From contig NZ_AP023189.1 of the NCBI RefSeq assembly GCF_012767755.2, forward strand, positions 6,450,001-6,514,000: a stretch of 64,000 nt of DNA, written 5' to 3'. Shown here piece after piece: positions 3,025 through 19,881 of this stretch. Position numbers and translations under genes: made by a program. Every line of letters begins with the position of its first letter. The first letter of the stretch is position 1. The stretch comes from Pseudomonas tohonis. Lineage in GTDB: Bacteria > Pseudomonadota > Gammaproteobacteria > Pseudomonadales > Pseudomonadaceae. The notes under the pieces were generated by a model. The model ran no database searches. It saw nothing but the letters and a program-made list of their open reading frames with translations, and was not told the origin of the DNA.

Positions 3025-4608
3025 TCAGCGACACAACACCGCGGCGCGCACCGGATCGATGCTGACCAGCTCGGCCAGCAGCGCCTCCTTGCGACGCCCG
3101 AGCGCGGGCTTGTCCACATCGGTGCGTTGGGATTTCAGGCGCAGCAGCTTGAGCAGGCGCGCCTGCACCTCGAAGCTCAGGTCGGGCTCCCATTGCTCGA
3201 GGGCCTGGCGCCTGGCCGTGACCTTCAGCTCCGCCAGCAGGTGGATGGCCAGGTCGGTCTTGCCGCACTGTTCGGCGACCCGGGCCATGAGCAGGCGCAG
3301 CAGCCAGCGCTGTCGCCCGCCCTGCGCGCCGGGTTGCGTCCCGAGCCAGGCGATGGCCGCCTCCACCCCCTCGCTGTCGGCCTGGGCCAGCGCCTTGGCT
3401 TCCAGGGCGAGGATGTCGACATCCACCGGATCGGGCGTCGCCGGCGCCGGCAGCCATTGCGGCGACTGGTTACCGCTCACGTGCTGGGCGATCCAGTTGC
3501 GCGTGACCTCGTCGGCAAACGGCGAGCCATCGTTCCAGCGCAGGGACTCCAGGCCCGGCAAGCGGTCGAGAAGCATGCCCAGGTCGCGCTTGACGATGTC
3601 GGCCCAGCCATCCTGCGGCGGCGCCTGCCGGCTCAGCGCCTGGCAGAGGTACCACTGCAGGTCGAGCCAGAAATGGTTCACGCCTTCGGCGTAGATGCGT
3701 TCGACCTGGTCGAGCAGCTCGCTCCAGCTCTGCTGCAGGTGCAGCCGCCGCAACTGGGCCCGGTAGTCGCTGCGGGGCGGCGCCAGCCGGGTCGTGCCGC
3801 TGCCCTCTGCGGGTGGCAGCTGGTGCACCGTGTCCCAGCGCAGGCTTTTCATCAGCCGGTGCGCCGCCAACCAGCCCAACGGCTGCTCGCGCAGGTAGCC
3901 GGCCAGGACGCGCCCGCCATCGAGCAGGTCGCGGCCGGAGCGGATGGGGGTGAGCGATGGCGTGGCGCCCTGCCGGCCCGCTTCGTGGGCCGCGCTGTTC
4001 TGCGGCACCAGGGCGTCCACCCCGCCGGATTGCGCCAGGCGGTTGGTCAGCGCGGTATAGAGCGCTCCCAGCGACGGCCGCTGTTCCTCCGGCCAGGTTT
4101 CCAGGGTCCGGTTCAGCCAGGCCAGCGCGGCGACCGTCCGCTCCGCCTCGATCTTCACCACTTCGGGGTAGAGCGACAGCCCATCCAGCACCTTGCCGCT
4201 GGCCAGCCACTCCAGCGCCATGCGCCGGCTGTTCGGCCGGCTCGGCAGGATGTCGTCGCCGAAGCGTTCGAGCAGCGCGGCCAGCAGGCTCAGCCCATCG
4301 GCGAGCCCCGCCTCGCCATCCATCTGCATGCGCGCCCAGAGGTAGTAGGTCGCCACCCGCAGGTCCTTGCAGCGCTGCTTGATCAGCGCTTCCGCCAACT
4401 GCGCGACCCGCTCGGTATCGGCGCCGGAGAGCTTGTTCACCTCCTCGCGCATGTGCTGGAAGTCGTCGTCGTAGCCCGGGTCATCCCCCACCACGGACGA
4501 CGGGCCGACCGGCTGCAGCCAGGCTTCCCAGCCAGGGGCCTCGCGGCGGGCCATCTCCAGCGCGTCACGCGCGCCCAGGCAGCTGGCGATTAGGGCGGAC
4601 AGGCTCAT
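3025..4608 (-). CDS. tssA: TssA, T6SS cap/organiser protein
   Basis: This 527-residue protein has an ImpA_N domain in its first ~150 residues (GPSSVVGDDPGYDDDF, then KDLRVATYYLWARMQMDGEAGLADGLSLLAALLERFGDDILPSRPNSRR). The C-terminal half is a helical VasJ-like region. TssA proteins prime tail polymerisation at the baseplate and, in long forms, stay at the growing sheath end. Length and C-terminal type place this among the long TssA proteins. The start codon overlaps the stop of tssM in an ATGA arrangement, so the two are translationally coupled. Confidence 0.9.
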   Translation of the reverse strand: MSLSALIASCLGARDALEMARREAPGWEAWLQPVGPSSVVGDDPGYDDDFQHMREEVNKLSGADTERVAQLAEALIKQRCKDLRVATYYLWARMQMDGEAGLADGLSLLAALLERFGDDILPSRPNSRRMALEWLASGKVLDGLSLYPEVVKIEAERTVAALAWLNRTLETWPEEQRPSLGALYTALTNRLAQSGGVDALVPQNSAAHEAGRQGATPSLTPIRSGRDLLDGGRVLAGYLREQPLGWLAAHRLMKSLRWDTVHQLPPAEGSGTTRLAPPRSDYRAQLRRLHLQQSWSELLDQVERIYAEGVNHFWLDLQWYLCQALSRQAPPQDGWADIVKRDLGMLLDRLPGLESLRWNDGSPFADEVTRNWIAQHVSGNQSPQWLPAPATPDPVDVDILALEAKALAQADSEGVEAAIAWLGTQPGAQGGRQRWLLRLLMARVAEQCGKTDLAIHLLAELKVTARRQALEQWEPDLSFEVQARLLKLLRLKSQRTDVDKPALGRRKEALLAELVSIDPVRAAVLCR

Positions 4609-7600
4609 GGTTGCGCTCCGTAACGCGCCAGCGGACGCGAAGCGCCGCCGGGTTCGAGGAAGATCCGCGCCGGCATGCGAAAGCCGCGCAGTTGCAGCAG
4701 CGCCAGGGGTCCGGCCCCCAGATCGGTGCGCAGGTGCCAGGTCAGCCCCAGGCCATCGGGGGCGTCGAGCACCAGGCGATAGCGGGTTTCGCTGTCATCC
4801 AGCGGAGTGACCCGGGCCCGCTCCAGGAGCCGGATCAGGCCCCAGGTGCCGGGGTAGTCGCCAAGCAGCCGCTCTCCGCTCCTGGCGTGGGTCCAGCTCA
4901 GGCGCGCGCCGGGGTGATCGCTCGCGCTGGGCCAGTCGAACCGTTGCCAGCGCTCCCGCTGGTTGAAGTACGCCAGGCGGCGACCATCGAGGATCAGGGT
5001 GGTCTGCACGAGGTCGCGTACCGGCTTGGCCCGCAGTTCGAAGGCGATGCCCATGCCGCCGTCGGTGTAGAGCACGTCGGCCAGTTCGGCGAGCCGATTG
5101 ACCGCCGCGAGGAACGCGGGATCGAGGCGCAGCCCCTGGCCCTGGGCGCTCTCGGGCACCCAGCGATTGCCGTCCTTGCGCAGCACGCCGCCCAGCTGGC
5201 GGGTGAGGAAGCGGTCGATGTGCCCGCTGTCGGCGCGGATCATCTGCCCGAGCATGGGTAGCGATGCGTCGCTGGCGCTCGCAGCGAAGGGGTAGCGGCC
5301 AGCGAAGGCGCTGTTCCAGGGACCGACGATGGCGCGCTGCCAGTGGTCATTGAGCCCGGCAGCGGACGGTTGCAGGATGCGCTGCCAGGCCTGGTCCAGC
5401 GGCTGGACGAACAGTGCCCGGCCAAAGCCGGCCCATTCGCTGCCGAGGCTGGCGGCGATCAGGCTGCCATAGGACTGGGTGTCGGTGAGGTCGACGCTGC
5501 GCCCCTGGAATACGGTTTGGGCCAGGGCCTGGATCATCGCCTGGGGATCCTGGGCGGCGCTCACCTGCTGCAGCGTCAGGCGCACCCGGGTCACGCGGGT
5601 GAGGAAGGCATGCAGGCTGATGCTGTCGTCACCGCCGGAGGGCTCGTCCCCTTTGCCGAGCAGCGCCAGCAGCGGGCCGAAGCTCTCCTCCAGCGGCCCC
5701 TTCGGCAGCGCCGCCAGCTGCTCGATGACCGGTGCCTTGTCCGGCCCCATGAGGTTCTGCGCGGACTGCAAAAGCGACTCGCCCAGGGCCTGGCTGCGGG
5801 TACCGGCCCGCCCCTGGTAGGACAGGGTATTGACCAGCGCGATGAACGGCGACTGGCGCACATCGGTCATCAGGGTGAGCTGGTCGACCACATCGGCGAG
5901 GCTACCGGCCTCCTGCCAGCGCAGGCTGTTGAGCATGTCCAGCCAGGCCCGGCCGTAGTCCTGGAAGTAGCGCGCGGTCAGGCTTTCGCGCAGGGCCTCG
6001 GGGGTCAGCTCGGCGTCGATCTGGCTGCGGTCATCGCTGAGTACCCAGTCGATCTCCTCGCGGCGCGCGGCGGCGATCTCGTCGATGGCCTTGCGCACTC
6101 CGCCTTCCCAGGCCTGGCGGGTGAATACACCCGGCACCTCGGCGGCGGTGGAGAACAGCGGCTGCGCGTCGGTATCGCCGACCATCTGCTGCAGCCCCAT
6201 GGCCGGGTACTGGTTGGCGACGGCGTCGAGCACCTGCCGGTAGAGGGTGGCCTCGCCATTGCGCTGGCCGAGCTGGCTGATCAGCAGCTGGCGGGCCCGG
6301 GCGACCAGGGCCGGGTCGGTGGTGATGCGCCAGCCGGGGTGCGCCTCCAGCTGCGCGGCGTAGAAGCGCCAGAGGTTCGGCGCGATGCCCTGCCATGTGC
6401 CCTCGCCGATGCCCATGCGGGCAGGCTCGGCGGCCGCCAGCGCCTTGCCGAGGAATGACGCATCGACATTCTCCGGCCGGGCCATCATCAGGTAGGCCTT
6501 GAGCGGCTCGTAGGCCTCCCGGGCCCGGGCGGCGCGCTCGGCGCTGCCCGGCGCCAGGCTGAGCAGCGTGCGCAGCTGGCGCTCGAAGCCGGCCGCAGCC
6601 GGGTCGCGGACCAGCCGGTTGTTGGCCGCCTCGTAGCGGGGCCAGAGCGCGGCGAGCAGGCCGTCGTTCTGGCTCAGGCCGAAACGCTGGTACCAGGGCG
6701 CGCCGTGCTTGCTGCGTTGGTCGAGGCGGTCGAGCTCATGGACCAGCGCGTTAAGGGCAAGCAGTTGCTCGTCGCCTTCCCGGGGTTGGTCCAGGGTGGC
6801 CAGGACGGCCTGCATCTCGGCGATCTGGACGCGGTTGCCGGCGAAGGAGAGCAGCGTCCCCAGCCCCCAGAACGCCAGGAGGCCGAGCGCGACGGCGGTC
6901 GCGGTGCGCCACCAGGGCCACCCGTAGGGCCGGCCGCCATGCCGGTCCGCCAGCACGCCTCGCCAGGCCGCGGGCGGCAGCCAATGATGCGCCGCAGCGC
7001 CCCCAGCGCCCGGCATCGCGAGGCTGAACCAGAGCCCGCGCGGCACCACCCCATGGCTGCGCTGCAAGTGGTCCCAGGTCCGTCGCCAACGGGTGATGCC
7101 TTCGTCCCGCAGGCCCTGGGCGAGACGCAGGAGAAAATCATGGCGGATGTCGGCCTGCATCCGGGCGAGCCCCTGCTCACGCAGCGGCTCGAGCAACTGC
7201 CCCAGACGGCCTTCCAGCTGCGCCGGCCCGGCGCGAGGCGCCAGCGTGCAGCCCACCGCGGCCTCGGTGGCCGGTTGCTCCCACTCGCTGCGGCAGACCT
7301 CCCAGAGGTTCACCGGCGCCTGCCAGCGCAGCCGCCTGGCGATATCCCGCAACTGGTGCTGGTAGCGGTCCAGGTAGTCTGCATCGGCGCCCTGCTGCGC
7401 GCTGAGCGCCCAGACGATGCCATCCAGGGGACGCTGCGGACGAAGCCGGCGCCACTGCTCCAGCCACGTGGCAGCGGCGGCATCCTGGGCGGCACCGCCC
7501 CACAACAGCACCACGCCCTCACCTTCCAGCCACTGCTTTTCGGCCAGGCCGGGGGCGATGGCGACTACCTCATCAGGCTCGCCGATCACCAGTAGCAGGC

Positions 7601-7949: not shown

Positions 7950-9191
7950 CTATCCCTGAAGATCGACAGCAATCGGTCGAATCGCCGTACACCACAGTCC
8001 TGGTGAACCTGTGCCATCCCCACAAAGGGTCAGCTGCGGACGGCCTTCCAGTTGAATCGCCTGGGCAGCTGCCGCAATCGCTAGCCAAGGTGCCGCCTTG
8101 CCACTGCGCCCAAGGATGGTGTCGAGATTGTGTTGGCCCTTTTGGGGCGTGGCTGGAACACCCAATCGCTCCAATGCCGTCCCAACATCAGCCTGGCGTT
8201 GATGATCAATACCCGACAGCCAGACTCCGTCGAGAGACCCAGGCCCAATCTGAGCCCAGTTCAGAGCCTGATGGATGGAGCTAACCAACCCATCGGTCGA
8301 GGGCTCACGCTCCTGTTCAGGACGATGCAAGTAGACATGAGGATGAGGGGAGACTCGCGATGGGCCACTACCGAACAGCATGCCCACCACTGCCTCGGTC
8401 GACTCTTCAACCACCCCGGGCGCTACTTGAAAAGCAATGATCATCAATAGCGCCTGATCGTTGGCGCGATGATCCAACCACTGATCAATCACTGCTAATC
8501 CGTTGCCCTCTGTCGCCTGCAATGCTCGCCGAATACCAGCCCCAGCCCACGCCTGCTTCCAAGCCTCCACAATTACCTTGTCCGATAGGCTGGTATTGAC
8601 GTCCAGATGCAAAGCCAAGGGAAGGTCAGGCGGGAACGATGCCAAAACCTGAGACATGTCAGCGAAGACCTGCGACAAAAGCCGCTGCAGCACATCTACA
8701 GAACGCTCCATCTCACCAATCGGCAAACGGCTATGGCGCACCGCGCTCTCGCCTTGCCATGACGCTTGTGCACGTAGAGCACTGACCTTGCCTTGCAGGG
8801 CCTTCAACTGCTGCGCACGTATGTCCTCAACTTGCTCATCGCGTAGAGCAGTATGCAAGCTGACAACCAGGACCTGCTGCGAACGTCGCCCCTGATTAAC
8901 CTTGCTCAATCGATCTTCCTCGCGAGCGGCATCCCATCCATCGGCAGCCCCCTTCTGCAAGGTGAACACCAGGGCCCGAAGCGCACCCAGCCCACACCAA
9001 GCCAGGAGAGGTAACCCGAGGGAGTGCCACCAAAAATATCCAGGCTCCTCTGTCATTGAGCTTTCAGCCAGCCAAAGAACCAGGCACACCCCCAGCACAA
9101 CACAGATCAGCAGCAGCCCGAGCCACACCCAGAGGCGCGGTGGCGCAGGTTGCGGAGCTGGAGCGGGAATCTCATCCAGTCTGACCACCAT
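7950..9191 (-). CDS. T6SS-linked two-span inner-membrane protein of unknown function
   Basis: I do not recognise this 413-residue protein with certainty. It starts MVVRLDEIPAPAPQPAPPRL and has two hydrophobic spans (about residues 22-42 and 54-75), followed by a soluble region. That region contains PLALHLDVNTSLSDKVIVEAW and a later GLVSSIHQALNWAQIG / LDGVWLSGIDHQRQADVGTALERLGVPA block. Its stop touches the tssM start and its start overlaps the PAAR stop (TGATCATG), so it is made with both. Base composition is AT-richer than tssM. It may be an adaptor loading effectors; DUF2875/Tla3-like proteins are one family worth testing, but I cannot confirm that by eye. Confidence 0.7.
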   Translation of the reverse strand: MVVRLDEIPAPAPQPAPPRLWVWLGLLLICVVLGVCLVLWLAESSMTEEPGYFWWHSLGLPLLAWCGLGALRALVFTLQKGAADGWDAAREEDRLSKVNQGRRSQQVLVVSLHTALRDEQVEDIRAQQLKALQGKVSALRAQASWQGESAVRHSRLPIGEMERSVDVLQRLLSQVFADMSQVLASFPPDLPLALHLDVNTSLSDKVIVEAWKQAWAGAGIRRALQATEGNGLAVIDQWLDHRANDQALLMIIAFQVAPGVVEESTEAVVGMLFGSGPSRVSPHPHVYLHRPEQEREPSTDGLVSSIHQALNWAQIGPGSLDGVWLSGIDHQRQADVGTALERLGVPATPQKGQHNLDTILGRSGKAAPWLAIAAAAQAIQLEGRPQLTLCGDGTGSPGLWCTAIRPIAVDLQG

Positions 9192-9193
9192 GA

Positions 9194-9457
9194 TCAGATA
9201 GCCTTTACATGCGGGAGAGACGACAAGAGAGAGCAACCACAAGCGCACCGGTGCCCATGGAAGGCCACCGGAAGTCCCGAATCACAGAAGTTCGGATTGC
9301 CTTCCACAATCACCGTTGGGCCATGGCCTGGAATCGGGCAGCTCACCGGATCGCCGACTCTGGCGACGCCGATACCATTGCAGATCATCTCAGCGGAGCC
9401 CGCCAGAACGGCCCCACCACCGGTGTTTTTATCGCCTAAGCGAATGACTCCACTCAT
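9194..9457 (-). CDS. PAAR-domain spike tip protein
   Basis: This 87-residue protein is a stand-alone PAAR protein. It opens MSGVIRLGDKNTGGGAVL and continues VARVGDPVSCPIPGHGPTVIVEGNPNFCDSGLPVAFHGHRCACGC. The repeated histidine and cysteine residues are those used by PAAR proteins to hold a zinc ion at the tip of a small beta-cone. It should sharpen the VgrG spike and may help recruit the effector. It has no extension, so it is not itself a fused toxin. Its stop overlaps the start of the following membrane-protein gene. Confidence 0.92.
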   Translation of the reverse strand: MSGVIRLGDKNTGGGAVLAGSAEMICNGIGVARVGDPVSCPIPGHGPTVIVEGNPNFCDSGLPVAFHGHRCACGCSLLSSLPHVKAI

Positions 9458-10273
9458 TTTAAATCCTACTTAATTTAATACGCGAAAAGCGACTCACTTC
9501 ATTACATAGCGTTAACAAGACAGTCTTCAGATAATGTAAGAACGACCACAAGAACTTCCACGCAATGGGGAAATACATCCACCCTAAACCACCAACGTAA
9601 CTTGGGTCATAAATCGACAGCTCTTCCAAACATATGTAACTGCGACCCCACCCGAAAAGTACGCACCACCTATTTATCTAATGGAAGACACTTCACAACA
9701 CTAGCGACATCTCTATACCCGCAGCCGGCTACTAGGCAAGCTCTCAAATCCACTCCATCGCGGCAACTGCTTAGCAAAGGATCAGGATGACCGCCACAAA
9801 ATAACCCCAGAGCGTCCAGTGCAAATTAGACACCTCAAGGCAATCCCTTTTATGCGAAAAACTATTGGAGCAGACCTCATTTCTGAACTCACCTCACCCT
9901 CATTAAACATGTCATGACCGGACACAATACTCGCATGATCATCGAGGAATATTTACCGCCCACCGAACTTATAACTCTTGCGAAAAAATACACTTCACTA
10001 CCTACAATGGATTTTTCTAGCTATGCAAGAGCTACTCAGCTGAGCTGTACAACTTATAACCGAACCACCCACTCAGTCTCGGGCCTGATATATATCTATA
10101 TCCCCAGATCACCAATTACAGCTTCAGGGGAAAAATTAATTATCGGCATATTTCATTAGCGCCACTTAAAGACACCACCATAACTTAATCACCAACTCCC
10201 ATACCCACAAGAAATCACAGCCAGCTCACGACCCCCTTGCCCACCACAATCCCAGTATCAGAGGTGGCATCCA
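9458..10273. other. AT-rich stretch without a supported gene
   Basis: About 800 bases between the PAAR gene and the immunity-gene remnant hold no reading frame that I can support on either strand. The stretch is much richer in A and T than the T6SS core and has stops in all frames at short spacing. A plus-strand frame of about 80 codons (9914-10159) has no good ribosome site and no recognisable features. The stretch probably consists of decayed cargo DNA plus the promoter for the PAAR-tssM genes. Confidence 0.6.
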
Positions 10274-10352
10274 TCAAGCACTTACTTCGCCCCCCTCATA
10301 CGCCTGATGGCTTGTATGTCCAGAACCATCACAGCCTTAATAAAAATGCGCA
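10274..10352 (-). pseudogene. C-terminal remnant of a third immunity-family gene
   Basis: Read on the minus strand, the end of this fragment gives GHTSHQAYEGGEVSA followed by a stop. The end of the intact gene at 10938-11465 gives GHAYISDQAYEGLEKEVSD followed by a stop. Nucleotides also align with small gaps from the stop codon over roughly 80 bases (for example CCCCTCATA-GC-TGAT-GCTT). An in-frame stop (10337-10339) and length differences show that the fragment is dead. It lies just downstream of the second intact family member, so the locus once held at least three tandem copies. Confidence 0.75.
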
Positions 10353-10405
10353 CACAACTAATTCAAGCATTGCCCAACCCTCTAATTCTCTGCTCAAAAA
10401 ATCAC

Positions 10406-10912
10406 TCACCACCTATTCTTTAACATAGCCTTCCCATCTAACCTAACAAGGGAGCCGACTTGCTCTTCCTTAGCACCACTTAAAAGCCTCCTCGTCCCTC
10501 CAGAGCCAATTACGACTCCAATCTCATACCTACCTTCAACTAGCCTCCAGCCTTGGAAAACGGTGTAACTAACTCCACGCCGATTGAATGACAAGGAGTA
10601 GTCCCCCATTGCATCGTTTGCCACACCTCCACCCCGTGAATAACCTGAGAAAGAAAAACCTCTCCAAGACTCACTATTCAGCTGCTCTGGATACTGCTCT
10701 TCAATATCCCCAGGCACACCAAGACGATAAACCAAATATCCTTGATTACGCCCTTCGCATAGAGAGACAAATTTTTCCGCATCAGTGACTTTAAATGAAA
10801 ACTGTATAACTTCATCACCCAAACACAAGGAGGATGCCTTCGCCTTATTAAAGCCCCCAAGCCCTACAAACAAAGTCAAAATAACAACCAGGCTATATGA
10901 CAGCCTACTCAT
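10406..10912 (-). CDS. Exported protein, probable T6SS immunity protein (paralogue 2)
   Basis: This 168-residue protein starts MSRLSYSLVVILTLFVGLGG, a signal peptide with cleavage probably after AKA, so it should act in the periplasm. It resembles its upstream neighbour along its length: SLCLGDE against SLCGDDE, a second cysteine (VSLC against ASIC), and GYLVYRLGVPGDIEEQYP against GYVQYRYGKSMRDVEITYP. The two conserved cysteines may form a disulfide. Being periplasmic and tandem after a cell-wall-targeting effector, it is best explained as an immunity protein, either a spare copy or one against a related toxin. No named family was recognised. Confidence 0.72.
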   Translation of the reverse strand: MSRLSYSLVVILTLFVGLGGFNKAKASSLCLGDEVIQFSFKVTDAEKFVSLCEGRNQGYLVYRLGVPGDIEEQYPEQLNSESWRGFSFSGYSRGGGVANDAMGDYSLSFNRRGVSYTVFQGWRLVEGRYEIGVVIGSGGTRRLLSGAKEEQVGSLVRLDGKAMLKNRW

Positions 10913-10937
10913 ATAGACCCCAGCATCACTGGAAATA

Positions 10938-11465
10938 TCAATCAGACACTTCCTTCTCCAGCCCCTCATAAGCTTGATCGCTTATATAAGCATGTCCTGG
11001 TTCATTACAGCTTTCATTAAACACCTCTTCCACCCCTTTCCTAACAACCAGTCTGTACCCCGCAATACCGCCCCCCTCAAACGAGTAAACATACTGACCA
11101 ACTTTAAATTGCAACAACTCCTTCACAGTATAAGAATTGCTTCTAGCTGCATCTGTCACCGAATAAATCTTGAATATACCCCTAGGAGGAATTTTGTTTA
11201 GTGGATATGTAATCTCAACATCTCGCATAGACTTGCCGTATCTATATTGCACATATCCCGCATCTGGACCACCATTCCCTTTTGCACATATAGAGGCAAC
11301 GTTACCCACAAAATCCGAATCACCTCGAGCCTTTATGGCACAACTGATATAAACCATTTCGTCATCACCACACAAAGAAAGACTTAAGTGATTTTCCGCT
11401 CCACCATACCCCGCAAAACAGCAGAGCAGCAGACAAACCACTAACTCTCTCTTAGACCTTTTCAT
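10938..11465 (-). CDS. Exported protein, probable immunity protein for the adjacent effector (paralogue 1)
   Basis: This 175-residue protein has an N-terminal signal peptide (MKRSKRELVVCLLLCCFAGYGG), so it is exported. Its start overlaps the stop of the 921-residue effector gene by four bases (ATGA), the usual arrangement for a toxin-immunity pair. A periplasmic location fits an effector that attacks peptidoglycan. Conserved points shared with the next gene are the SLC-GDDE motif, a second cysteine, and the GYVQYRYGK..DVEITYP block. I know no family name for it; the immunity role is inferred from position, signal peptide and duplication. Confidence 0.78.
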   Translation of the reverse strand: MKRSKRELVVCLLLCCFAGYGGAENHLSLSLCGDDEMVYISCAIKARGDSDFVGNVASICAKGNGGPDAGYVQYRYGKSMRDVEITYPLNKIPPRGIFKIYSVTDAARSNSYTVKELLQFKVGQYVYSFEGGGIAGYRLVVRKGVEEVFNESCNEPGHAYISDQAYEGLEKEVSD

Positions 11466-14227
11466 TTCAAAACCTCTTCAACCCAGAGCTGATTGAAATT
11501 CTGTTTTCTACGCGACCTACTGTCTGTATCCCTATTGACAATATCTGTGATCAAGTCAACTACAAATGGCGCCGAGCCTTTATCTGCTCTTTCATATAAC
11601 TTCTTGTCCAACCAAAAATATGCTGCTGAACGAGCAGCATATTTGGCTCTCACCAAAAAATCTGGAGACGCAATGAAATCCAGGTCGTCACTTGGCCATA
11701 GCGCACTATTTTTTTGGTGCCATTCGGTAAATTTCTGATAATTGTATCGCCCCGTTAAATGCTTTAGGCCACGTCCCCGGTATTTCCAGCCATCCCCACT
11801 TGAAACACCTGTATTACCTAGATTTTCCTGCCCCCCATAAGCACCATTCGCAATTGCTTTGAAATCCTCTATCCCCATAGCCATTCCGTCAGCTTTAATT
11901 TTCCCCTGCAAAACAACAAAACCATGCAAATTAGCTTCATCAGGATTAGACTTGAAGTAGCTAAATTTACTTATCAAAGCACTCACCCTATAACTGAGAT
12001 CCTCCTCCACTCTTAAGGATAATCCCGTTTCCTGCAGAATCTGCGCAAAAAAATGAGCGCGCCTAAGGTGAGTGTCTAACTTATAAAAAACAAGGTGAGA
12101 GTTGAGCTCTTCGGCAATATCCTGCAGGTCCTTATATCGTTCCGCTCCAAGTGCCGGATAAAGTTTACGCATAACTTCCAAGGTAAATGAAAAATCGAAT
12201 TCGCTGAAGCTTCCCATCATTCCTATTGGATGCAGATGCCAAACCTGCCCATCGGTCGGTAGGGCCAAATTCGGTGCGACCGCTTGCCACCAACTCAAAT
12301 TCTCAATCCGCTCTTTCTCCGCCAACCAGTTGATATGTGGCGCTGAACTTCGATGGCCATAAAGATCATCCAGAACATCCCACTTACCCGGTCTCCAGTA
12401 CCAGTCGCTTTCGCTATATATCGCCAGACGGGAAACGGATTGCGCTTGTGCCGGCAAGCGCAGGGCCTGCTGCAGCTGTTCGGCACTCATCACTTCACCA
12501 GGGTTAGGCCCTCGACCGATTAGATCGAACAGACGGTTTCGAATCGGGCCCCGATCTGAGAGATCGGCCAGTTGTGCGGCACGAGCACGATCTTTCTCAC
12601 TGGGCAAAATGCCCTGCACTTTCAATGCGTAGGCTTGGCAGCTTTCCAGACTGTCGCCATTGAGAATTGCTGCATAGCCACTCCAATCCCAGGGGCTATG
12701 CCACTGAGCATTGTTGTCTTCGACCCGCACCCATCCCTTGAGCAGTAAGCCCTCGACGTCGTGCAGAAGGTCATCGAGACGATACCAAGTGCAACCGTCT
12801 TCACCGTTTCGCGCGGGAATGCGAAGGGTCTTCTCGGCCCCCAAACCATCGAGCTGCTGCTTCGGCAAGTGCAGTTCAGCAGCGCTGGTCGGCGTATCTA
12901 CTCCAACGCTGGGGGGGCCAGCGACACTGAAGTACTCCTGATGCGGGACCACTGAGGTGCCTTGGGGTAGCGTCAGCCAAGTCCTTGAGCTGGCTGGCAG
13001 GTGTTTTGCCCAAGCACGACTAACGTCCATGAAGGCTTCTACATCTTCATGACTGAAGACCTCCAGGTGCAGCTGCTGTTGGGGTACTACATCCTCTAGA
13101 TCCTGATAGTTACCAAGATGACCAATAAGCTCGCCCGCACGAATAGGAACCGGCTTATCCAGGACCAGTATCCGGTCCAGAGCATCAGGCTCACGCTCGC
13201 TCATCAGTGATGCGTAATGAAGATACTGGTTTACCCGCTCGAGCTTGCGAAACTGCCCCTCTCCACTGATGGTCACTTCGGTACCTTGCGGCAACTTGAA
13301 GAGCACTTCGGAGTTGCCGTTTGGCTCGGCACGAACGTTGAGCGTGCTGTTGTCCTGATTCAGCTGGACTCGATAGCTACCGGATGCATTCGGCCGAAGG
13401 TTGCTGAAGGCTACATAGCCACGCAGGCTCCCATCAGGATTCTGCAACGCCACAGGACCTGGGCTATCGATCCATTCGCGGAAATCCCCCTGGCCATTGA
13501 TGGTCACGGCGGTCCCGTGTGGCAGCAGACCGATCACCTTGCCTCGGGTCGCTTGGTTCCTGACCCGTAGTCCTACAACACCGGGGCTACCCGCATGGGT
13601 ATCGCGGACATTGGGATTAACCTGATAGCGGGCAGCCAAGGGCCAAAAGCCAGGGCGCGATAACTCCGGCGACTCGGCATACGGCTCCCAGTCCTGCAAG
13701 TGCATGTACAGGCTGAAAAATGTCAGGCTGGGCGGGGTATCGTCTACGCCGGAGATTTCCGGAGCCTGTAACCGATGCCGCACCAAGACGAAGTTTCGCG
13801 AGAAAACTCGCTCTACTGGCTCGCCATCGAGATGGTAGGTAGTGCACGGCGACTGGGTATCTATGCGATAGGCCACAACTTCGCCGTCGGCAAGGCAGCG
13901 CACATATGCCTGGTCCATCGTCCCGGCGGTACCCACATCGAAATGCACACCGAGGTGCCAGTAGCCGTTACGCCCTAATGGGTAATAGCCTCGTTCGGCC
14001 TTAGCTTGCTGTATCAGTTGCTGTAGCGCGTTCGCGCGGGAGCCAAAAGGGTGGCACCAATTCTGGACAGACGCCAGGTGAGCGCTGGAGGGGTCGGCCA
14101 TCCAATGGCCGAGCAATGGCCTACATGTTGCCTGAGGCTCCGACTGGCGCCCGTCAGACCGAAGCTGCTCGTCCAACCATGTACTGGTTGTATCCATGAT
14201 CTGTTGAACCAAGCTCCTGGTATCCAT
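11462..14227 (-). CDS. T6SS effector candidate: M23-like / SH3 / GH19-type peptidoglycan hydrolase
   Basis: This 921-residue protein follows vgrG and is probably delivered by it. Residues 85-180 and 365-392 look like two halves of an M23 (lysostaphin-like) fold: GYWHLGVHFDVG, then ADGEVVAY, FSLYMHLQ, and QQLHLEVF. The insert between them holds two bacterial SH3 repeats (about 217-250 and 294-328: VRNQATRGKVIGLL..., LNVRAEPNGNSEVLFKL). The C-terminal third (about 700-921) resembles GH19 lysozyme/chitinase: RRAHFFAQILQETG, with Glu733 the likely acid, then YGGQENLGNTG and GWKYRGRGLKHLTGRYNY. No signal peptide is present, as expected for T6SS delivery. The M23 zinc motifs are incomplete (QLH rather than HLH), so that part may bind rather than cut. 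Confidence 0.8.
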   Translation of the reverse strand: MDTRSLVQQIMDTTSTWLDEQLRSDGRQSEPQATCRPLLGHWMADPSSAHLASVQNWCHPFGSRANALQQLIQQAKAERGYYPLGRNGYWHLGVHFDVGTAGTMDQAYVRCLADGEVVAYRIDTQSPCTTYHLDGEPVERVFSRNFVLVRHRLQAPEISGVDDTPPSLTFFSLYMHLQDWEPYAESPELSRPGFWPLAARYQVNPNVRDTHAGSPGVVGLRVRNQATRGKVIGLLPHGTAVTINGQGDFREWIDSPGPVALQNPDGSLRGYVAFSNLRPNASGSYRVQLNQDNSTLNVRAEPNGNSEVLFKLPQGTEVTISGEGQFRKLERVNQYLHYASLMSEREPDALDRILVLDKPVPIRAGELIGHLGNYQDLEDVVPQQQLHLEVFSHEDVEAFMDVSRAWAKHLPASSRTWLTLPQGTSVVPHQEYFSVAGPPSVGVDTPTSAAELHLPKQQLDGLGAEKTLRIPARNGEDGCTWYRLDDLLHDVEGLLLKGWVRVEDNNAQWHSPWDWSGYAAILNGDSLESCQAYALKVQGILPSEKDRARAAQLADLSDRGPIRNRLFDLIGRGPNPGEVMSAEQLQQALRLPAQAQSVSRLAIYSESDWYWRPGKWDVLDDLYGHRSSAPHINWLAEKERIENLSWWQAVAPNLALPTDGQVWHLHPIGMMGSFSEFDFSFTLEVMRKLYPALGAERYKDLQDIAEELNSHLVFYKLDTHLRRAHFFAQILQETGLSLRVEEDLSYRVSALISKFSYFKSNPDEANLHGFVVLQGKIKADGMAMGIEDFKAIANGAYGGQENLGNTGVSSGDGWKYRGRGLKHLTGRYNYQKFTEWHQKNSALWPSDDLDFIASPDFLVRAKYAARSAAYFWLDKKLYERADKGSAPFVVDLITDIVNRDTDSRSRRKQNFNQLWVEEVLK

Positions 14228-14252: not shown

Positions 14253-16625
14253 TTAACCGGAAAATGCAGCGTCGTCCTGATGCACCATTGCGGGCTCCAC
14301 CAATGGCGGCATGACCGGCATCGCGGCTGGCTGCGAGGCGCCCCCTTGTCGGTTCACTCGTGCCTTGATAATGAACTCGCCGCTACCCAACTCGACTTCG
14401 CCCGGCGCCAGAGTGAGATAGCTACCCCCACCGTTGAGAACGATCCTCTTCTTGGCGGTGATGTGGATTTCATCCTCGGTGCTGACGATGTCCAGCCCCT
14501 GGCGCGCCAGCAGTTCCAGGCGGTCGTTCTGCGCCTGGATCTGCACCGCGCCCTGGTTGGCGATGAGCTTCAGGCCGAGCTTGCGCACGAACAGGCTGAC
14601 GCCCTCCCCCACCCCGATGAACAGGCGCCTCACCACGCTCAAGGCGGCGTCCTTGCCCGCGTTGGCGATGAGGTTCCGTTCCGCGGCAAGTTGCAGGTGG
14701 CTACCACTGCTGAGCGCGATGCCCTTGGGCGCACTGAGCAGCAGGACGGATGACTTGATCTGCTCCAGGTCCTGCCTGAGCAGGTCGAGCTGCGCCTGCA
14801 CATCGGCCGGCTCGGCATGGGCAAGCTGTGCGTGCTCGGAAAGCGTCTGCATCTCCTCACCGGCGCGTTGCAGCCGGGCGAGTGTGTCCTGCATGGCCAG
14901 CACCTGCCCCTGGGCGCGAGCCTGCTCATCGGCACTGATGTACAGCCCCCTACCCGCCCGCACGGCACCCCAGCCGTCGGTGCGCAGTTCGAAGCCTTCG
15001 CCGCGTTTCTGCCGTTGCCCATCCACCAGGTGGCCGAGGTTGAGCTGGCTCTTGCCGCTGTGCTCGGTGCTGAGCTTGATGTGTTCCTGGCCACGGGTGT
15101 CGTCCAGGCGCAGCTTGTTGTTGGACGGGGTGCGCAGGACGTTGCGCTTGTAGTTCTTCAGGGTGACGAGGTCGGGGTGCCGGCTGTCGTGCAGGGCGAA
15201 GGCGATGAAGCCCCGGTCCGGGTCGCCGCGTTCGAAGGCGATGCCGACCTCGGTGCCCTGGATCAGCGGCAGGTGCAGGCCGTGGGTATCCCCGGCATAG
15301 GCGCGCGCCAGGCGCAGCCACATGCTTTCCTGGCCGGCGGGCCAGGTGTCCTGGTCGAAGAGGAAGTTGACCTTGTAGCGGCCCTCCAGGTCGATGTGGC
15401 TGTAGAGGTCGTCGGCCTGTGCGCTGGTGACGCGAGCCGGGATGGTGCCGGCGATCACGGGGCGCGGCAGCAGCGGCGGGCGAAAGCACACGCTTTCGCT
15501 GTAGGGGATGGCCTCGAAGCGGGCTTCGAAGCTGCGGTCGCGGGCGGCGACGGTGACCAGGCGGGTGATGACGGCGCCAGGGGTGAAGGCCTCGGGCGCG
15601 CCGCCCTCGATCTTCAGCACCTGCCCAGGCGCCAGGGTGGCGCTGCTGGTGCGGCCGCCGAGGCGGGTCTGGTCGTTGAGGTAGCGCTCGTGGGCGAGGC
15701 GGGCATAGAAGTAGCCGCTTTCGCTTTTCAGGTCTTCGTCGCGGGAGCCGGGGTCGTCCAGCTCGATGTAGGGCTCGCCGTAGTGATAAGCCTCGCCGTA
15801 GGTGGTCGGGTCGCCCCGGGTCTGGTCGAGGTCGCCGTCGAGGTAGGCCGTCGCGTCACGCGGGGTGTAGGCGCGGATGCGCAGGTTCCTTTCCACCACG
15901 CCGTGGCTCGATTGCAGGTCCCAGACGGCGTCCTGGCCGCTGCTGGTGGTGCCGGACTGCGGGCGGTAGGGCAGCTGGACGCCGAACCGGTAGTTGCGCT
16001 GGTCATCGTGGAACTCGACGACATCGATGCCCAGGCGCTCGTCGGCGGTGAAGCGGTACCAGATGCCGACCTCGGCCAGCAGGCGCTGGATGAAGGCCAG
16101 GTCGCTCTCGTCGTATTGCATGACCTGCTCGCGCTTGGGGTAGTCGCGCTTGAGGTCGAAGAAGAAGTCCTGCCCGGCCCAGCGGTGGCGGTCGCTGCGC
16201 AGGATCTGCTCGACGATCTCGGGCACCGAGAGGTGCTGATAGATGCGGTACTGCCGGCCTCGCCCGAGCAGGGTCAGGCGCGGCTGCAAGGTGATTTCGT
16301 AGCGGGCCTCGTCGTTGGAGCCGGAGATCCGCCGGAAGCCCGTGACCACGCCGTGCAGGGTGCGCAGCGGCTGGGCCGGCGGCACGCCCAGGCCGGCGAA
16401 GGGCACCGGTTTGGGGGGCGCGAAGAGGCTGAAGCTGGCGGGCTGCCCGACGATGCGCCTGGAGGGGAGGTCGCGCTGGGAGGAGGTGAACTCGACCTGG
16501 TAGGTGAAGGGCTGGCTGAGCGTCTCGTCCCCGACGAAGGCGAGGACGTCGAGCCCGACGTCGAGTTCGCCGACCTGCAGGCGGTGACGGCTGTGATCGA
16601 AGAAATGGCGGAGTTCGGCAAGCAT
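14253..16625 (-). CDS. vgrG: VgrG, T6SS spike protein (TssI)
   Basis: This 790-residue protein has the gp27-like N-terminal part (VGELDVGLDVLAFVGDETLSQPF..., DESDLAFIQRLLAEVGIWYRF) and the gp5-like OB region (WLRLARAYAGDTHGLHLPLIQGTEVGIAFERGDPDRGFI, SNNKLRLDDTRGQEHIKLSTE). It ends with a DUF2345-type beta-helix extension (LLSAPKGIALSSGSHLQLAAERN... IHITAKKRIVLNGGGSYLTL). It trimerises to form the spike that carries PAAR and cargo. ATG 16625 was chosen because GGAGG lies just before it; a TTG two codons upstream is in frame. No catalytic domain is appended, so toxicity should come from the effector encoded next. Confidence 0.94.
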   Translation of the reverse strand: MLAELRHFFDHSRHRLQVGELDVGLDVLAFVGDETLSQPFTYQVEFTSSQRDLPSRRIVGQPASFSLFAPPKPVPFAGLGVPPAQPLRTLHGVVTGFRRISGSNDEARYEITLQPRLTLLGRGRQYRIYQHLSVPEIVEQILRSDRHRWAGQDFFFDLKRDYPKREQVMQYDESDLAFIQRLLAEVGIWYRFTADERLGIDVVEFHDDQRNYRFGVQLPYRPQSGTTSSGQDAVWDLQSSHGVVERNLRIRAYTPRDATAYLDGDLDQTRGDPTTYGEAYHYGEPYIELDDPGSRDEDLKSESGYFYARLAHERYLNDQTRLGGRTSSATLAPGQVLKIEGGAPEAFTPGAVITRLVTVAARDRSFEARFEAIPYSESVCFRPPLLPRPVIAGTIPARVTSAQADDLYSHIDLEGRYKVNFLFDQDTWPAGQESMWLRLARAYAGDTHGLHLPLIQGTEVGIAFERGDPDRGFIAFALHDSRHPDLVTLKNYKRNVLRTPSNNKLRLDDTRGQEHIKLSTEHSGKSQLNLGHLVDGQRQKRGEGFELRTDGWGAVRAGRGLYISADEQARAQGQVLAMQDTLARLQRAGEEMQTLSEHAQLAHAEPADVQAQLDLLRQDLEQIKSSVLLLSAPKGIALSSGSHLQLAAERNLIANAGKDAALSVVRRLFIGVGEGVSLFVRKLGLKLIANQGAVQIQAQNDRLELLARQGLDIVSTEDEIHITAKKRIVLNGGGSYLTLAPGEVELGSGEFIIKARVNRQGGASQPAAMPVMPPLVEPAMVHQDDAAFSG

Positions 16626-16627
16626 GT

Positions 16628-19294
16628 TCAAGCCTCCTCGATGACCGGATGCATGTGGTCCTGCCGGTCGACGAACTGCAGGGTGATGCCTTCATCCTCG
16701 TCATGGCCGAGGATGACGCCGCGGGCGTGCTGCCGGGCGGCCTGGCGCTGGAGGAGCTGCTGGCTGAGCACCGGCAGGATCTGCTGGTTGAGCAGGCTGT
16801 CGATGTTGCGGGCGCCGGTATCCGGCAGCAGGCAGGCGGCGACGAGGGCATCGCTCAGGGCGTCGTCGACCTGGCAGCCCAGGCCGTAGTGGCGTTGCAG
16901 GCGGCGTGAAACCTGTTCGAGCTTGAGATCGACGATGCGCCTGAGTGCATCTGCCGGCAGCGGGCGATAGATCAGCGTCTGGAAGCGAGCCAGCAACGCG
17001 GGCTGGAAGTGATCGCGCAGCACCGGGCGCAGCAGTTCCTGGAGCACGCCGTCGGTGGCATCCGGCTGCACCTGCAGGCACGCCTGCAACAGGTCGCTCC
17101 CCAGGTTGGAGGTCATCAGGATGACGGTGTTGCGGAAGTCGATTTCCCGCCCCTCGCCGTCCCGCATGAAGCCACGGTCGAAGACCTGATAGAACAGGTT
17201 GAGCACGTCCGGGTGGGCTTTCTCCACTTCATCGAGCAGCACCACGCTGTAGGGCCGTTGGCGCACCGCTTCGGTCAGCACGCCACCCTGGCCGTAACCG
17301 ACATAGCCCGGCGGAGAGCCCTTGAGCTGGCTGACGGTGTGGGCCTCCTGGTACTCGGAGAGGTTGAGCGTGATCAGCGATTTCTCGCCGCCATACAGGC
17401 TGTCGGCCAGCGCCAGTGCGGTCTCGGTCTTGCCGACGCCACTGGTGCCCACCAGCAGGAACACGCCCTGGGGCGCCTGGTCTCCGGTCAGGCCCGTCCG
17501 TGCGGCTCGCAACCGCTGGGCCAGCGCGCCGAGGGCATGTTCCTGGCCGATGACCCGGCGCCCGAGTTGATGCTCCAGCTCCAGCAGGCTGGCCTGCTCA
17601 TCCTTGAGCAGGCTGCCCAGCGGGACGCCGGTCCAGTCGGCGACCACCTCGGCGACGTTGCGCGCGGTGACATCCAGGGACAGCAGCGGCTGGTCACCCT
17701 GCGCCAGCTCAAGACGCCGCTGCAGCTCGGCACAGCGTTCCGCCTGCCGTGGCGCCTCCTGGCGAGCCGCCAGGAGCTGCTGGCTCAGGTCGAGCTCGTG
17801 GCGGTACTGCTGCTCCAGCTCCGCATGGCGTCGTGCCAGAGCGGCGTGCTGTTCGGCGAGCTCGTCCAGCCGCCGGGCGGGTGCCTTTCCGCCCAGCAGG
17901 CCGTCCGCTTCCAGGGCCTGCCGCTCCAGCTCCAGGGCGACCTGCCGGGCCTTGATGCCGAGCAGCGCCTGGGGCTCGCAATCGAGGCTCATGCGCACGC
18001 GGGCGCTGGCGGTATCCAGCAGGTCGACGGCCTTGTCGGGCAGCTGGCGCCCGGTCATGTAGCGGCGTGACAGGCTGACGGCTGCGCGGACCGCGGCATC
18101 CTCGATATGCACGCCGTGATGGCTGGCATAGCGGGCCTTGAGGCCTCGCAGCATGAGGCAGGCGCCAGGGTCGTCCGGCTCGTCGACCTTGACCATCTGG
18201 AAGCGCCGCTCCAGCGCCGCGTCCCGCTCGAAGTACTGCTTGTATTCGCTCCAGGTGGTGGCGGCGATGGTGCGCAGCTCGCCGCGGGCCAGGGCGGGCT
18301 TGAGCAGGTTGGCGGCGTCCGCGCCGCCGGCCTGGTTGCCGGCACCGATCAGGGTATGGGCCTCGTCGATGAACAGCAGGATGGGCGGCTCCGCTTGCTG
18401 CACCGCGTCGATGATCTGCTTCAGGCGCTGCTCGAATTCCCCCCTGACTCCCGCACCAGCCTGCAACAGCCCCAGGTCGAGGGTCCGCACGCTCACGGGT
18501 TTCAGGCTGTCGGGTACTTCGCCCTCGGCGATACGCAGGGCCAGGCCCTCGACCAGGGCGGTCTTGCCGACGCCCGGATCGCCCACGAGGATGGGGTTGT
18601 TCTTGCGTCGCCGACTGAGGATGTCGATGACCTGGCGGATCTCGTCATCACGGCCGAACACGGGGTCGATACGCCCTTCACGGGCCTGCGCCGTCAGGTC
18701 CTGGGTGAACCGGTCGAGCAAGGCCCGGGACGGGTCGGCTGCCGAGCCCGCAGGTGGGCTGGAAGGCTGAACGACCTGACCGGGCTCGGCTTCGTCGAGG
18801 CGGGCTTCACGCTGCACATCCGGGCGCTCTTCCGAATGCCGGTCCAGCAAGGGCAACAGGCGTTGCAGCTGGGCTTCGCTGAGGCTGAGCAGCGGCCAGG
18901 CCGTCTCGCAACGCAACAGGCTGGGCGTTTCCAGCAGGGCGCCGAGCAGGTGCAAGGAACGCAGCCGGTCGTTGTCGTCGTCCAGGGAGGCCCGCAGCCA
19001 GGCGTTCTTGATCAACTGCTGCAGCTCGGCACTGAGCTGGGGTCGCTCGCGCACGCTGCGGGGCAGGCCGTCGAGATAGGCGAGCAGCCCCTGCCAGAGC
19101 GCATCGAGTTCCCAACCATAGCGCCGCGCGAGCAGGGTGAGGTCGCCCTCCCCCTGCTCCAGCAGCTTGAGCAGCCAGTGCTCGGGGGTGACCTGGGCAT
19201 GGGCGCGGCTCTGGCAGAGCGAGGCGGCGGCACTCAAGGCCCGGGCGCAATAGGGGTTCAGGCGACGAAGCAGGCTGGCGGAGTTCTGGGCCAT
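16628..19294 (-). CDS. clpV: ClpV (TssH), T6SS sheath-recycling AAA+ ATPase
   Basis: This 888-residue Clp/Hsp100 ATPase has an N domain (1-150), a first AAA+ module with Walker A GDPGVGKTA at about 238-246 and Walker B LLFIDEAHTL near 306-315, a coiled-coil M region rich in Glu/Arg/Gln (about 455-530), and a second module with GTSGVGKTE at about 616-624. ClpV extracts TssC from contracted sheaths in the cytoplasm. The start MAQNSASLLRRLNPYCARAL is preceded by AAGGAC; a longer open frame upstream runs through hcp in another frame and is not used. The gene lies directly after hcp and before vgrG. Confidence 0.95.
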   Translation of the reverse strand: MAQNSASLLRRLNPYCARALSAAASLCQSRAHAQVTPEHWLLKLLEQGEGDLTLLARRYGWELDALWQGLLAYLDGLPRSVRERPQLSAELQQLIKNAWLRASLDDDNDRLRSLHLLGALLETPSLLRCETAWPLLSLSEAQLQRLLPLLDRHSEERPDVQREARLDEAEPGQVVQPSSPPAGSAADPSRALLDRFTQDLTAQAREGRIDPVFGRDDEIRQVIDILSRRRKNNPILVGDPGVGKTALVEGLALRIAEGEVPDSLKPVSVRTLDLGLLQAGAGVRGEFEQRLKQIIDAVQQAEPPILLFIDEAHTLIGAGNQAGGADAANLLKPALARGELRTIAATTWSEYKQYFERDAALERRFQMVKVDEPDDPGACLMLRGLKARYASHHGVHIEDAAVRAAVSLSRRYMTGRQLPDKAVDLLDTASARVRMSLDCEPQALLGIKARQVALELERQALEADGLLGGKAPARRLDELAEQHAALARRHAELEQQYRHELDLSQQLLAARQEAPRQAERCAELQRRLELAQGDQPLLSLDVTARNVAEVVADWTGVPLGSLLKDEQASLLELEHQLGRRVIGQEHALGALAQRLRAARTGLTGDQAPQGVFLLVGTSGVGKTETALALADSLYGGEKSLITLNLSEYQEAHTVSQLKGSPPGYVGYGQGGVLTEAVRQRPYSVVLLDEVEKAHPDVLNLFYQVFDRGFMRDGEGREIDFRNTVILMTSNLGSDLLQACLQVQPDATDGVLQELLRPVLRDHFQPALLARFQTLIYRPLPADALRRIVDLKLEQVSRRLQRHYGLGCQVDDALSDALVAACLLPDTGARNIDSLLNQQILPVLSQQLLQRQAARQHARGVILGHDEDEGITLQFVDRQDHMHPVIEEA

Positions 19295-19351
19295 GGCGAT
19301 GCGTCCTTGTACGAAGTGCGTGGCGCTTGTGCGTCGGAATGGTTCACGAAG

Positions 19352-19380
19352 GGTCGGCGGAGCGGTGTGCTCCGCCGACC
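19352..19380 (-). promoter_or_regulatory. Strong stem-loop between hcp and clpV
   Basis: The 12-base arm GGTCGGCGGAGC (19352-19363) pairs perfectly with GCTCCGCCGACC (19369-19380) across a five-base loop. It lies just after the hcp stop codon. No U-run follows on the minus strand, so a complete Rho-independent terminator is unlikely. A 3' end stabiliser or partial terminator that lets hcp be made in excess over clpV is the likely role. Confidence 0.7.
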
Positions 19381-19389
19381 ATCCCGAGG

Positions 19390-19881
19390 TCAGGCGCTCT
19401 GACGTTCGTTCCAGGAGTCGGCATGGATGATGTTGCCGTCCTTGTAGGTCCAGGTGATCTTCTCGTAGCGCAACTCGACCTGTTCCAGGTGGTTGTGCTT
19501 CTCCTTGGACGGGTCCTTCACGTCGTGCATCTTCGGCGCGACCTTCACGACCTTGACGTTCTCCAGCTTGGTGATGAAGTACTCGACCTCCTGGCCGGCA
19601 TCGTCGATGCGGTACCACTTGAATTCGGCGCTCTTGAGGGTCTGGCCGGTGGTCACCGCCTTGTAGAGGTAGGGGCTGGAGGCATCGATTTCCTTGGTGA
19701 AGAGGAACGGGGTGTGGACCCGGGTGCCGGTCAGCTTGCCGGTGTTGTTGTCGGTGGGGATGTAGAGGCTGTGATCCTGCGCGACGACCTCGATGCTGCC
19801 TTCGCGTTTCTGCACGTCCACCGAGCCCTTGATGTCGGCTCCGCCATGGTCCTGCAGCCAGAGATAAACGGGAATTGCCAT
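19390..19881 (-). CDS. hcp: Hcp (TssD), T6SS inner-tube protein
   Basis: This 163-residue protein is an Hcp family member: MAIPVYLWLQDHGGADIKGSVDVQKREGSIEVVAQDHSLYIPTD, then GTRVHTPFLFTKEIDASSPYLYKAVTTGQTLKSAEFKWYRI, and the C-terminal KITWTYKDGNIIHADSWNE. Hexamer rings of Hcp stack into the tube that is shot into target cells, and they can carry small effectors. The ATG at 19881 has a GGAG ribosome site a few bases upstream. It has no toxin extension. A strong stem-loop follows the gene. Confidence 0.96.
   Translation of the reverse strand: MAIPVYLWLQDHGGADIKGSVDVQKREGSIEVVAQDHSLYIPTDNNTGKLTGTRVHTPFLFTKEIDASSPYLYKAVTTGQTLKSAEFKWYRIDDAGQEVEYFITKLENVKVVKVAPKMHDVKDPSKEKHNHLEQVELRYEKITWTYKDGNIIHADSWNERQSA

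What the first reader, a model, noticed from the sequence alone, without database searches (positions are those of the whole stretch)
11462..14227. Effector joins a split M23-like domain, tandem SH3 repeats and a GH19-type lysozyme
The N-terminal M23-like halves (HLGVHFDVG and LHLEVF) are about 290 residues apart, with two SH3 repeats between them, and a GH19-like domain with QETG and GWKYRGRGLKHLTGRYNY closes the protein. Such a three-part wall-degrading layout is unusual for a T6SS cargo. The zinc motifs are imperfect, which suggests that the M23 part became a wall-binding module.
Basis: partly seen in the sequence, partly recalled or inferred. Interest (0 to 1): 0.75.

Follow-up and report, generated by a model that had tools for sequence, protein, structure and literature searches.

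The report
Two-blade wall-cutting T6SS effector
This Pseudomonas gene encodes a likely antibacterial weapon of a recently described kind, carrying a zinc-site domain interrupted by wall-binding modules and a lysozyme-like tail; it is a well-preserved member of a known class rather than a new sort of protein.

Summary
The minus-strand ORF 11462-14227 (921 aa) has two halves of an M23-like domain (H91/H95 and H387), two SH3b repeats between them and a GH19-type lysozyme tail (E733, E742). It lies in a T6SS locus after vgrG and before two signal-peptide-like genes and a PAAR gene. The layout is not new: BCAL1166 of Burkholderia cenocepacia was tabulated in 2019 as M23 + SH3_3 + lysozyme-like T6SS cargo, and the TseP dual-function family and the WHIX class were described in 2025. 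The WHxxxH motif, bipartite N-domain, swappable wall-degrading tails, low-GC tail and vgrG linkage fit that class. Decay of the M23 part to a binding module is not supported: five His and one Glu are invariant in 37 of 37 aligned sequences and match, in order and kind, six residues whose mutation lowers TseP amidase activity. One uninterrupted relative beside vgrG passes Pfam's M23 cut-off, so the WHIX core appears to be an M23 fold opened by an insertion; the searches named found no paper saying so. Amidase activity remains inferred: the first His of M23's HxH was absent in all 86 ORFs scored, WHIX alone was reported non-toxic, and Foldseek gave no credible M23 match.

The parts
11462..14227 (-). 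T6SS cargo effector ORF, 921 aa (P0001), WHIX/TseP-type
13628..13999 (-). First half of the split M23-like core (WHIX region 1), residues 77-200
   Evidence: residues 77-181 align to an uninterrupted relative that passes Pfam M23; modelled strands 94-177
13943..13960 (-). WHxxxH motif W90-H91-L-G-V-H95 (two predicted zinc ligands)
   Evidence: H91 and H95 in 37 of 37, W90 in 36 of 37; motif named in PMC12135965
13700..13702 (-). H176 of LYMHL, equivalent by register to the M23 Y-x-H histidine
   Evidence: 37 of 37; 9 of 9 in distant alignment A3
13379..13591 (-). SH3b repeat 1, residues 213-283
   Evidence: matches repeat 2, shuffle control; strands in model
13193..13372 (-). SH3b repeat 2, residues 286-345
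   Evidence: Pfam SH3_3 33.2 bits over residues 294-323
13013..13192 (-). Second half of the split M23-like core, residues 346-405, with H370 and the third zinc-ligand candidate H387 (QLHLEVF)
   Evidence: hhalign to 35 M23 domains in register, E 7.4e-4, best control segment 6.6e-3; invariants
12215..13012 (-). Rest of WHIX region 2, residues 406-671, with E606, a degenerate EF-hand loop and the closing WHLHP motif
   Evidence: alignments; EF-hand_6 in 20 of 37 rows at E 0.1, not in P0001
11465..12214 (-). GH19-type lysozyme tail, residues 672-921, probable catalytic pair E733/E742
   Evidence: 8xcl TseP C-domain E 1.6e-18, Foldseek, both Glu in 44 of 44
10938..11465 (-). P0002, 175 aa, signal-peptide-like; probable cognate immunity to the GH19 tail
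   Evidence: homologues directly downstream of 3 of the 5 tails over 40% identical and of a 51% identical tail in B. stagnalis; two further homologues lie near other tails
10406..10969 (-). P0003, 187 aa, diverged paralogue of P0002; possible orphan immunity against a muramidase-type tail
   Evidence: its two strong homologues lie beside tails of the PF11860-type cluster, 2 of 4 such loci
9194..9457 (-). PAAR spike-tip gene
   Evidence: PF05488 E 2.6e-23
14253..16631 (-). VgrG, likely carrier, directly upstream (start codon not checked)
16628..19618 (-). ClpV/TssH-like ATPase
   Evidence: AAA_2, ClpB_D2-small and Clp_N matches

Best explanation
The protein is a WHIX/TseP-type T6SS cargo effector of a Pseudomonas. 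Its N-terminal domain (about residues 56-671) is a WHIX domain. Its core is an M23 (LytM-like) zinc fold opened between the Y-x-H strand and the final strand by two wall-binding SH3b repeats. The domain loads the protein on the neighbouring VgrG and, by analogy with TseP, probably also acts as a Zn-dependent peptidoglycan amidase. The low-GC GH19 tail cleaves glycan strands in the target periplasm. P0002 protects the producer from the tail; P0003 is a leftover or spare immunity gene for another tail type. Shown here by sequence: domain order, conserved residues, tail polymorphism, association of P0002 with like tails. Inferred: VgrG loading, wall binding, zinc binding, amidase and lysozyme activity, immunity.
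For: WHxxxH and bipartite order as published. Locus order clpV-vgrG-effector-P0002-P0003-PAAR. Tail matches TseP-C 8xcl by sequence and fold; E733/E742 in 44 of 44 tails of its cluster. Six invariant residues match the six TseP-N amidase residues in order and kind. An uninterrupted relative (L148, 755 aa, directly after a vgrG confirmed by Pfam, before a signal-peptide-like gene) passes Pfam M23 at 30.1 bits against 28.7 and aligns to residues 77-181 at E 6e-8. GC of the N-domain is 57.2%, of the tail 42.7%, of vgrG 67.5%; N exceeds C in 84 of 84 relatives with a tail of 100 aa or more (2 of 86 left out), a pattern reported for TseP (PMC11893102). Relatives carry tails of GH19, pesticin, muramidase, VgrG3-C, SLT and GH108 types.
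Against: The first His of M23's HxH is absent (0 of 86 ORFs scored). PMC12135965 reports that WHIX alone was not toxic in the E. coli periplasm; PMC11893102 says TseP toxicity was mitigated by lysozyme mutations. D608 is Glu in 36 of 37 rows. H370 and E606 are not kept in the most distant relatives. Profile alignment of the first half with M23 (E 0.067) is worse than that of both SH3 control segments (0.021, 0.0066). Foldseek gives no credible M23 match for the full model (lysostaphin rank 14, E 0.055, prob 0.08 or less, rmsd 20). P0002 homologues also occur near tails of other clusters (L054, L063), and 2 of the 5 closest tails lack one. The TseP full sequence was not aligned; the residue match is by order, kind and spacing.
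Confidence: 0.7

Rival explanations
1. The M23-like part is a dead, purely structural secretion chassis (VgrG cap); only the GH19 tail is toxic and the SH3b repeats bind the wall.
For: First His of HxH absent in 86 of 86 scored ORFs; WHIX reported non-toxic alone; the only immunity association found here follows the tail.
Against: Five His and one Glu kept in 37 of 37; equivalent residues matter for TseP amidase activity, which needs zinc.
Confidence: 0.28
2. One reading: the M23 part has decayed into a wall-binding module in this protein.
For: Imperfect match to HxxxD/HxH.
Against: The changed motif is shared by all aligned relatives, so it is not a local decay; the SH3b repeats already supply a likely binding module.
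Confidence: 0.06
3. The N-domain keeps an M23 endopeptidase activity rather than amidase activity.
For: An uninterrupted relative passes the Pfam M23 model; most characterised M23 enzymes are endopeptidases (recalled).
Against: TseP-N releases tri- and tetrapeptides as an amidase (PMC11893102); HxH altered.
Confidence: 0.12

Closest known systems
TseP of Aeromonas dhakensis (PMC11893102; PDB 8XCL for the C-domain)
   Same: N-domain residues of the same order and kind (five His, one Glu), an EF-hand as in 20 of 37 rows of A2, a GH19-type lysozyme C-domain with two Glu, higher GC in N than C, vgrG carrier
   Different: Two SH3b repeats in the split N-domain here (SH3 does not occur in the TseP paper's text); EF-hand loop degenerate here; immunity protein not compared with TsiP
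WHIX effectors, subclass I (PMC12135965)
   Same: WHxxxH, bipartite N-terminal domain, chitinase/lysozyme-like C-terminal toxin, vgrG neighbour, downstream signal-peptide-like gene
   Different: SH3 does not occur in that paper's text; two downstream immunity-like genes here
BCAL1166 of Burkholderia cenocepacia (PMC6612558 Table A6)
   Same: M23 + SH3_3 + lysozyme-like C-terminus, beside tssI, predicted immunity gene
   Different: Sequence not compared here; in silico prediction in that table

Membership tests
WHIX class of T6SS effectors | WHxxxH motif in region 1 | tested here: met
   W90-H91-LGV-H95; H91/H95 37 of 37, W90 36 of 37
WHIX class of T6SS effectors | Bipartite domain with an intervening sequence | tested here: met
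   spacing from Y-x-H to LH-x-E 133-261 in 86 scored ORFs, the window's own included
WHIX class of T6SS effectors | RPS-BLAST match to the published WHIX PSSM | not testable with these tools
   PSSM not held
WHIX class of T6SS effectors | C-terminal peptidoglycan-targeting domain and flanking signal-peptide gene | tested here: met
   signal peptide judged by eye, no predictor run
WHIX class of T6SS effectors | T6SS-dependent secretion | not testable with these tools
   experiment needed; vgrG neighbour
TseP family | TseP-C type lysozyme with two catalytic Glu | tested here: met
   8xcl E 1.6e-18, Foldseek rank 1, E733/E742 44 of 44
TseP family | N-domain with the six amidase residues | tested here: inconclusive
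   same order and kind, 37 of 37; TseP sequence itself not aligned
TseP family | Zn-dependent amidase activity of the N-domain | not testable with these tools
   assay needed
Peptidase M23 (PF01551) | Pfam model above cut-off in this protein | tested here: not met
   no M23 hit at E 1; domain is split
Peptidase M23 (PF01551) | HxxxD and HxH zinc/catalytic motifs (motifs recalled) | tested here: not met
   HxxxH and QxH here; relatives alike
Peptidase M23 (PF01551) | Homology to a domain that passes the Pfam model | tested here: met
   L148 relative, 30.1 bits over cut-off 28.7, aligned to residues 77-181 at E 6e-8; covers the first half only
Peptidase M23 (PF01551) | Fold match to solved M23 structures | tested here: inconclusive
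   Foldseek on the whole model: lysostaphin rank 14, E 0.055, rmsd 20; model of the domain alone not obtained
GH19-type lysozyme/endolysin | Fold and catalytic Glu pair | tested here: met
   Pfam GH19 itself not reached

The most novel reading that the evidence does not exclude
WHIX, published as a secretion domain, and TseP-N, published as an amidase, are one domain: an M23 zinc fold opened by an insertion (SH3b repeats in pseudomonads). WHIX effectors would then carry a built-in second blade in their loading domain. The sequence between the WHIX halves, whose role PMC12135965 leaves open, would be a wall-targeting module.
Probability: 0.5. Interest if true: 0.62.

Novelty: new member of a known kind. 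Interest (0 to 1): 0.36.

Why it matters
The protein itself is ordinary for its class. Its value is that it may tie two 2025 descriptions together: a WHIX paper that left open whether the domain is active and what separates its halves, and a TseP paper that found a zinc amidase without naming WHIX in the parts I read. If the link holds, the class (4,434 unique accessions in PMC12135965) should be re-examined for a second enzymatic activity and for matching immunity. The tail/immunity association and the partial cassettes in a relative also show how these effectors may change their payload.

Tried and rejected
Considered and rejected: a chance motif match for M23 (register, invariants and the L148 relative argue otherwise); an artefactual fusion of two genes (the L002/L021, L037, L041, L044 and L048 proteins join the same N-domain to a tail of the same cluster); P0003 as a second immunity for the M23 half (its two strong homologues lie beside tails of the muramidase cluster, L012 and L061, 2 of 4 such loci; its other hits, L063 at E 5.8e-5 and L098 at 5e-4, are weak).

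Led nowhere: Pfam, NCBIfam and PHROGs for P0002 and P0003 (no hits). Profile alignment of the first half alone with M23: right register, but E 0.039 and 0.067, and worse than the SH3 control segments. The class-wide genome search gave 2 of 369 genomes, one being the window's own. A second structure job, for residues 56-405, was never accepted. The first tail clustering contained an error (three proteins concatenated as P0001) and was redone. In alignment A3 the L102 row lacks its N-terminus because of my coordinates, so HxxxH was seen there in 8 of 9 rows. The Fisher tests (p 4e-4 for P0002, 1.7e-3 for P0003; n = 85 loci) used hand-entered counts, a post hoc strength threshold and only the 1.5 kb downstream, so they leave out the L054 and L063 hits; loci are related; they are only indicative.
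Full report
What is there. The ORF at 11462-14227 on the minus strand encodes 921 aa from an ATG. Upstream in the same direction lie vgrG (14253-16631) and a clpV/tssH-like gene (16628-19618). Downstream lie two small genes with signal-peptide-like starts, judged by eye (P0002, P0003), and a PAAR gene at 9194-9457; a TssM/IcmF gene lies further on. The 80 kept relatives named are Pseudomonas and close genera plus one unclassified gammaproteobacterial MAG; the best, P. boanensis, has 63% identity over the N-domain. So the window is taken to be Pseudomonas (inference).

The tail. Residues 704-913 match the crystal structure of the TseP C-domain, 8XCL, at E 1.2e-17. The isolated tail matches it at 1.6e-18, and phage-type endolysins follow. 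The AlphaFold2 model (pLDDT 81.4, pTM 0.67, 37 sequences) gives 8XCL as first Foldseek hit (E 2.1e-7) and a P. aeruginosa GH19 endolysin second (E 2.4e-7). E733 and E742 are Glu in 44 of 44 tails of the GH19 cluster, P0001 included, which fits a catalytic pair.

The N-domain. Pfam sees only SH3_3 over its cut-off. HLGVHFD, LYMHL, GELIGHLG and QLHLEVF follow the order of M23 motifs. The aligned relatives carry HxxxH, not HxxxD (37 of 37), and the first His of HxH is absent in all 86 ORFs scored (88 unique ORFs, the window's own included; 2 were not scored because my pattern missed the motif). H91, H95, H176, H370, H387 and E606 are invariant in 37 of 37.

Is it M23? Profile alignment to 35 M23 domains from the same bacterial family places the second half in register at E 7.4e-4, better than every control segment (best 6.6e-3). 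It places the first half in register at only E 0.067, worse than both SH3 segments. Better evidence came from a search of 25 genomes of the family with the M23 model. One hit over the cut-off lies in the same protein that the effector itself had found weakly. That protein (L148, 755 aa) directly follows a gene with VgrG domains and precedes a signal-peptide-like gene without Pfam hits. It has WHGGVH and YMHL followed after 34 residues by IHFE (35 in a standard M23 protein of the window's genome), so it has no insertion. It scores 30.1 bits against a cut-off of 28.7 for M23 over residues 42-163. It aligns with P0001 residues 77-181 at E 6e-8, and weakly around the start of the tail (E 6e-4). 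Thus the split domain is best read as an M23 relative into which SH3b repeats were inserted. Foldseek on the whole model gives no credible M23 match (lysostaphin rank 14, E 0.055, rmsd 20), so the fold claim rests on homology, not on a fold match.

What the N-domain does. PMC12135965 (abstract, sections 6, 9, 12 and 26 and passages seen) defines WHIX by WHxxxH and a bipartite domain, shows it suffices for T6SS secretion, and leaves open its activity and the role of the sequence between its halves. PMC11893102 (abstract, sections 6, 9 and 11 and passages seen) shows that TseP-N is a zinc-dependent amidase whose activity is significantly reduced by mutating H19, H23, H109, H339, H359 or E539. 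The invariants here have the same order and kind, with the HxxxH spacing identical. TseP is also predicted to have an EF-hand, as are 20 of 37 rows of A2; here that loop is degenerate. I conclude that WHIX and TseP-N are probably the same domain. Searches for papers holding both names (one paper, the WHIX paper, naming TseP once) and for WHIX with type VI secretion (two papers) found none that says so in the parts I saw; the library's note says that no bioRxiv preprints are held. The TseP sequence was not in hand, so this is not an alignment result.

Against activity: WHIX alone was not toxic in E. coli, TseP toxicity was mitigated by lysozyme mutations, and D608 departs from Glu in this protein.

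Polymorphism. Among 86 unique relatives plus P0001, tails fall into 10 clusters by linkage at E 1e-4: 44 GH19-like including P0001, 24 of a second type, and eight smaller ones, one of them a 48-aa stub (stub length). Of seven non-GH19 tails scanned, four pass a Pfam cut-off (pesticin, muramidase PF11860, VgrG3-C, SLT) and three do not. GH108 is seen in Paraburkholderia. P0002 homologues lie directly downstream of 3 of the 5 tails over 40% identical (not L037, L091), about 1.1 kb downstream in L051, and weakly in L012 and L039 (85 loci with downstream sequence). Over whole loci, further P0002 homologues lie in L054 (E 1.1e-32) and L063 (E 3.8e-17), some kilobases from tails of other clusters, and in the named loci L107 (E 1e-14) and L106 (E 6e-8). 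In L107 (B. stagnalis) the tail is 51% identical over 244 residues while the N-domain is 28% identical, with the P0002 homologue just downstream. So tail and immunity appear to travel together. P0003 homologues lie beside 2 of 4 tails of the muramidase cluster (one member, L042, tested by Pfam) and weakly in L063 and L098. P0002 and P0003 are diverged paralogues (E 1e-7). In one relative (L117) the full effector is followed by two partial copies, each a WHIX-region-2 fragment with another tail of the same broad cluster. The tail is 14.5 GC points below the N-domain here, and lower than the N-domain in 84 of 84 relatives with a tail of 100 aa or more, median 14 (2 of 86 left out).

Prior art. 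BCAL1166 of B. cenocepacia was tabulated as M23, SH3_3 and lysozyme-like CTD beside tssI (PMC6612558, Table A6 passage). SH3-containing T6SS effectors are noted in Stenotrophomonas (PMC13340143 and PMC13055248, passages). The finding is therefore a new member of a known kind, with one potentially useful unifying inference.

Noticed in passing
L117 (unnamed relative), about 1629-2798 and 3538-4755: Two tandem partial copies follow the full effector, each a WHIX-region-2 fragment with a different tail of the pesticin-like cluster and small genes between: an apparent orphan toxin cassette array.
   Followed up: partly
window 10406-10969: P0003 looks like an orphan immunity gene for a muramidase-type tail; no such tail was found in the window.
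   Followed up: partly
window 9470-10405: About 0.9 kb of 44.8% GC without an assigned gene between P0003 and PAAR, in a 66.3% GC window; no tail remnant found with the tails in hand.
   Followed up: partly
L107 (Burkholderia stagnalis plasmid), 5699-6448: GH19 tail 51% identical to this one although the N-domain is only 28% identical: the tail is far better conserved across genera than the N-domain, suggesting transfer of tail plus immunity.
   Followed up: partly
L115 (Rahnella aceris plasmid pRAHAQ01), 3497-6985: A 1162-aa WHIX-motif protein with an N-terminal extension, preceded by a YbjP/YqhG-family gene and vgrG, resembling the published subclass II layout.
   Followed up: no
window 12404-12406 (residue 608): Asp in the conserved ESEW motif, where 36 of 37 rows have Glu.
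   Followed up: no
window 7950-9248: 432-aa ORF inside the T6SS cluster with no Pfam match over a cut-off.
   Followed up: no
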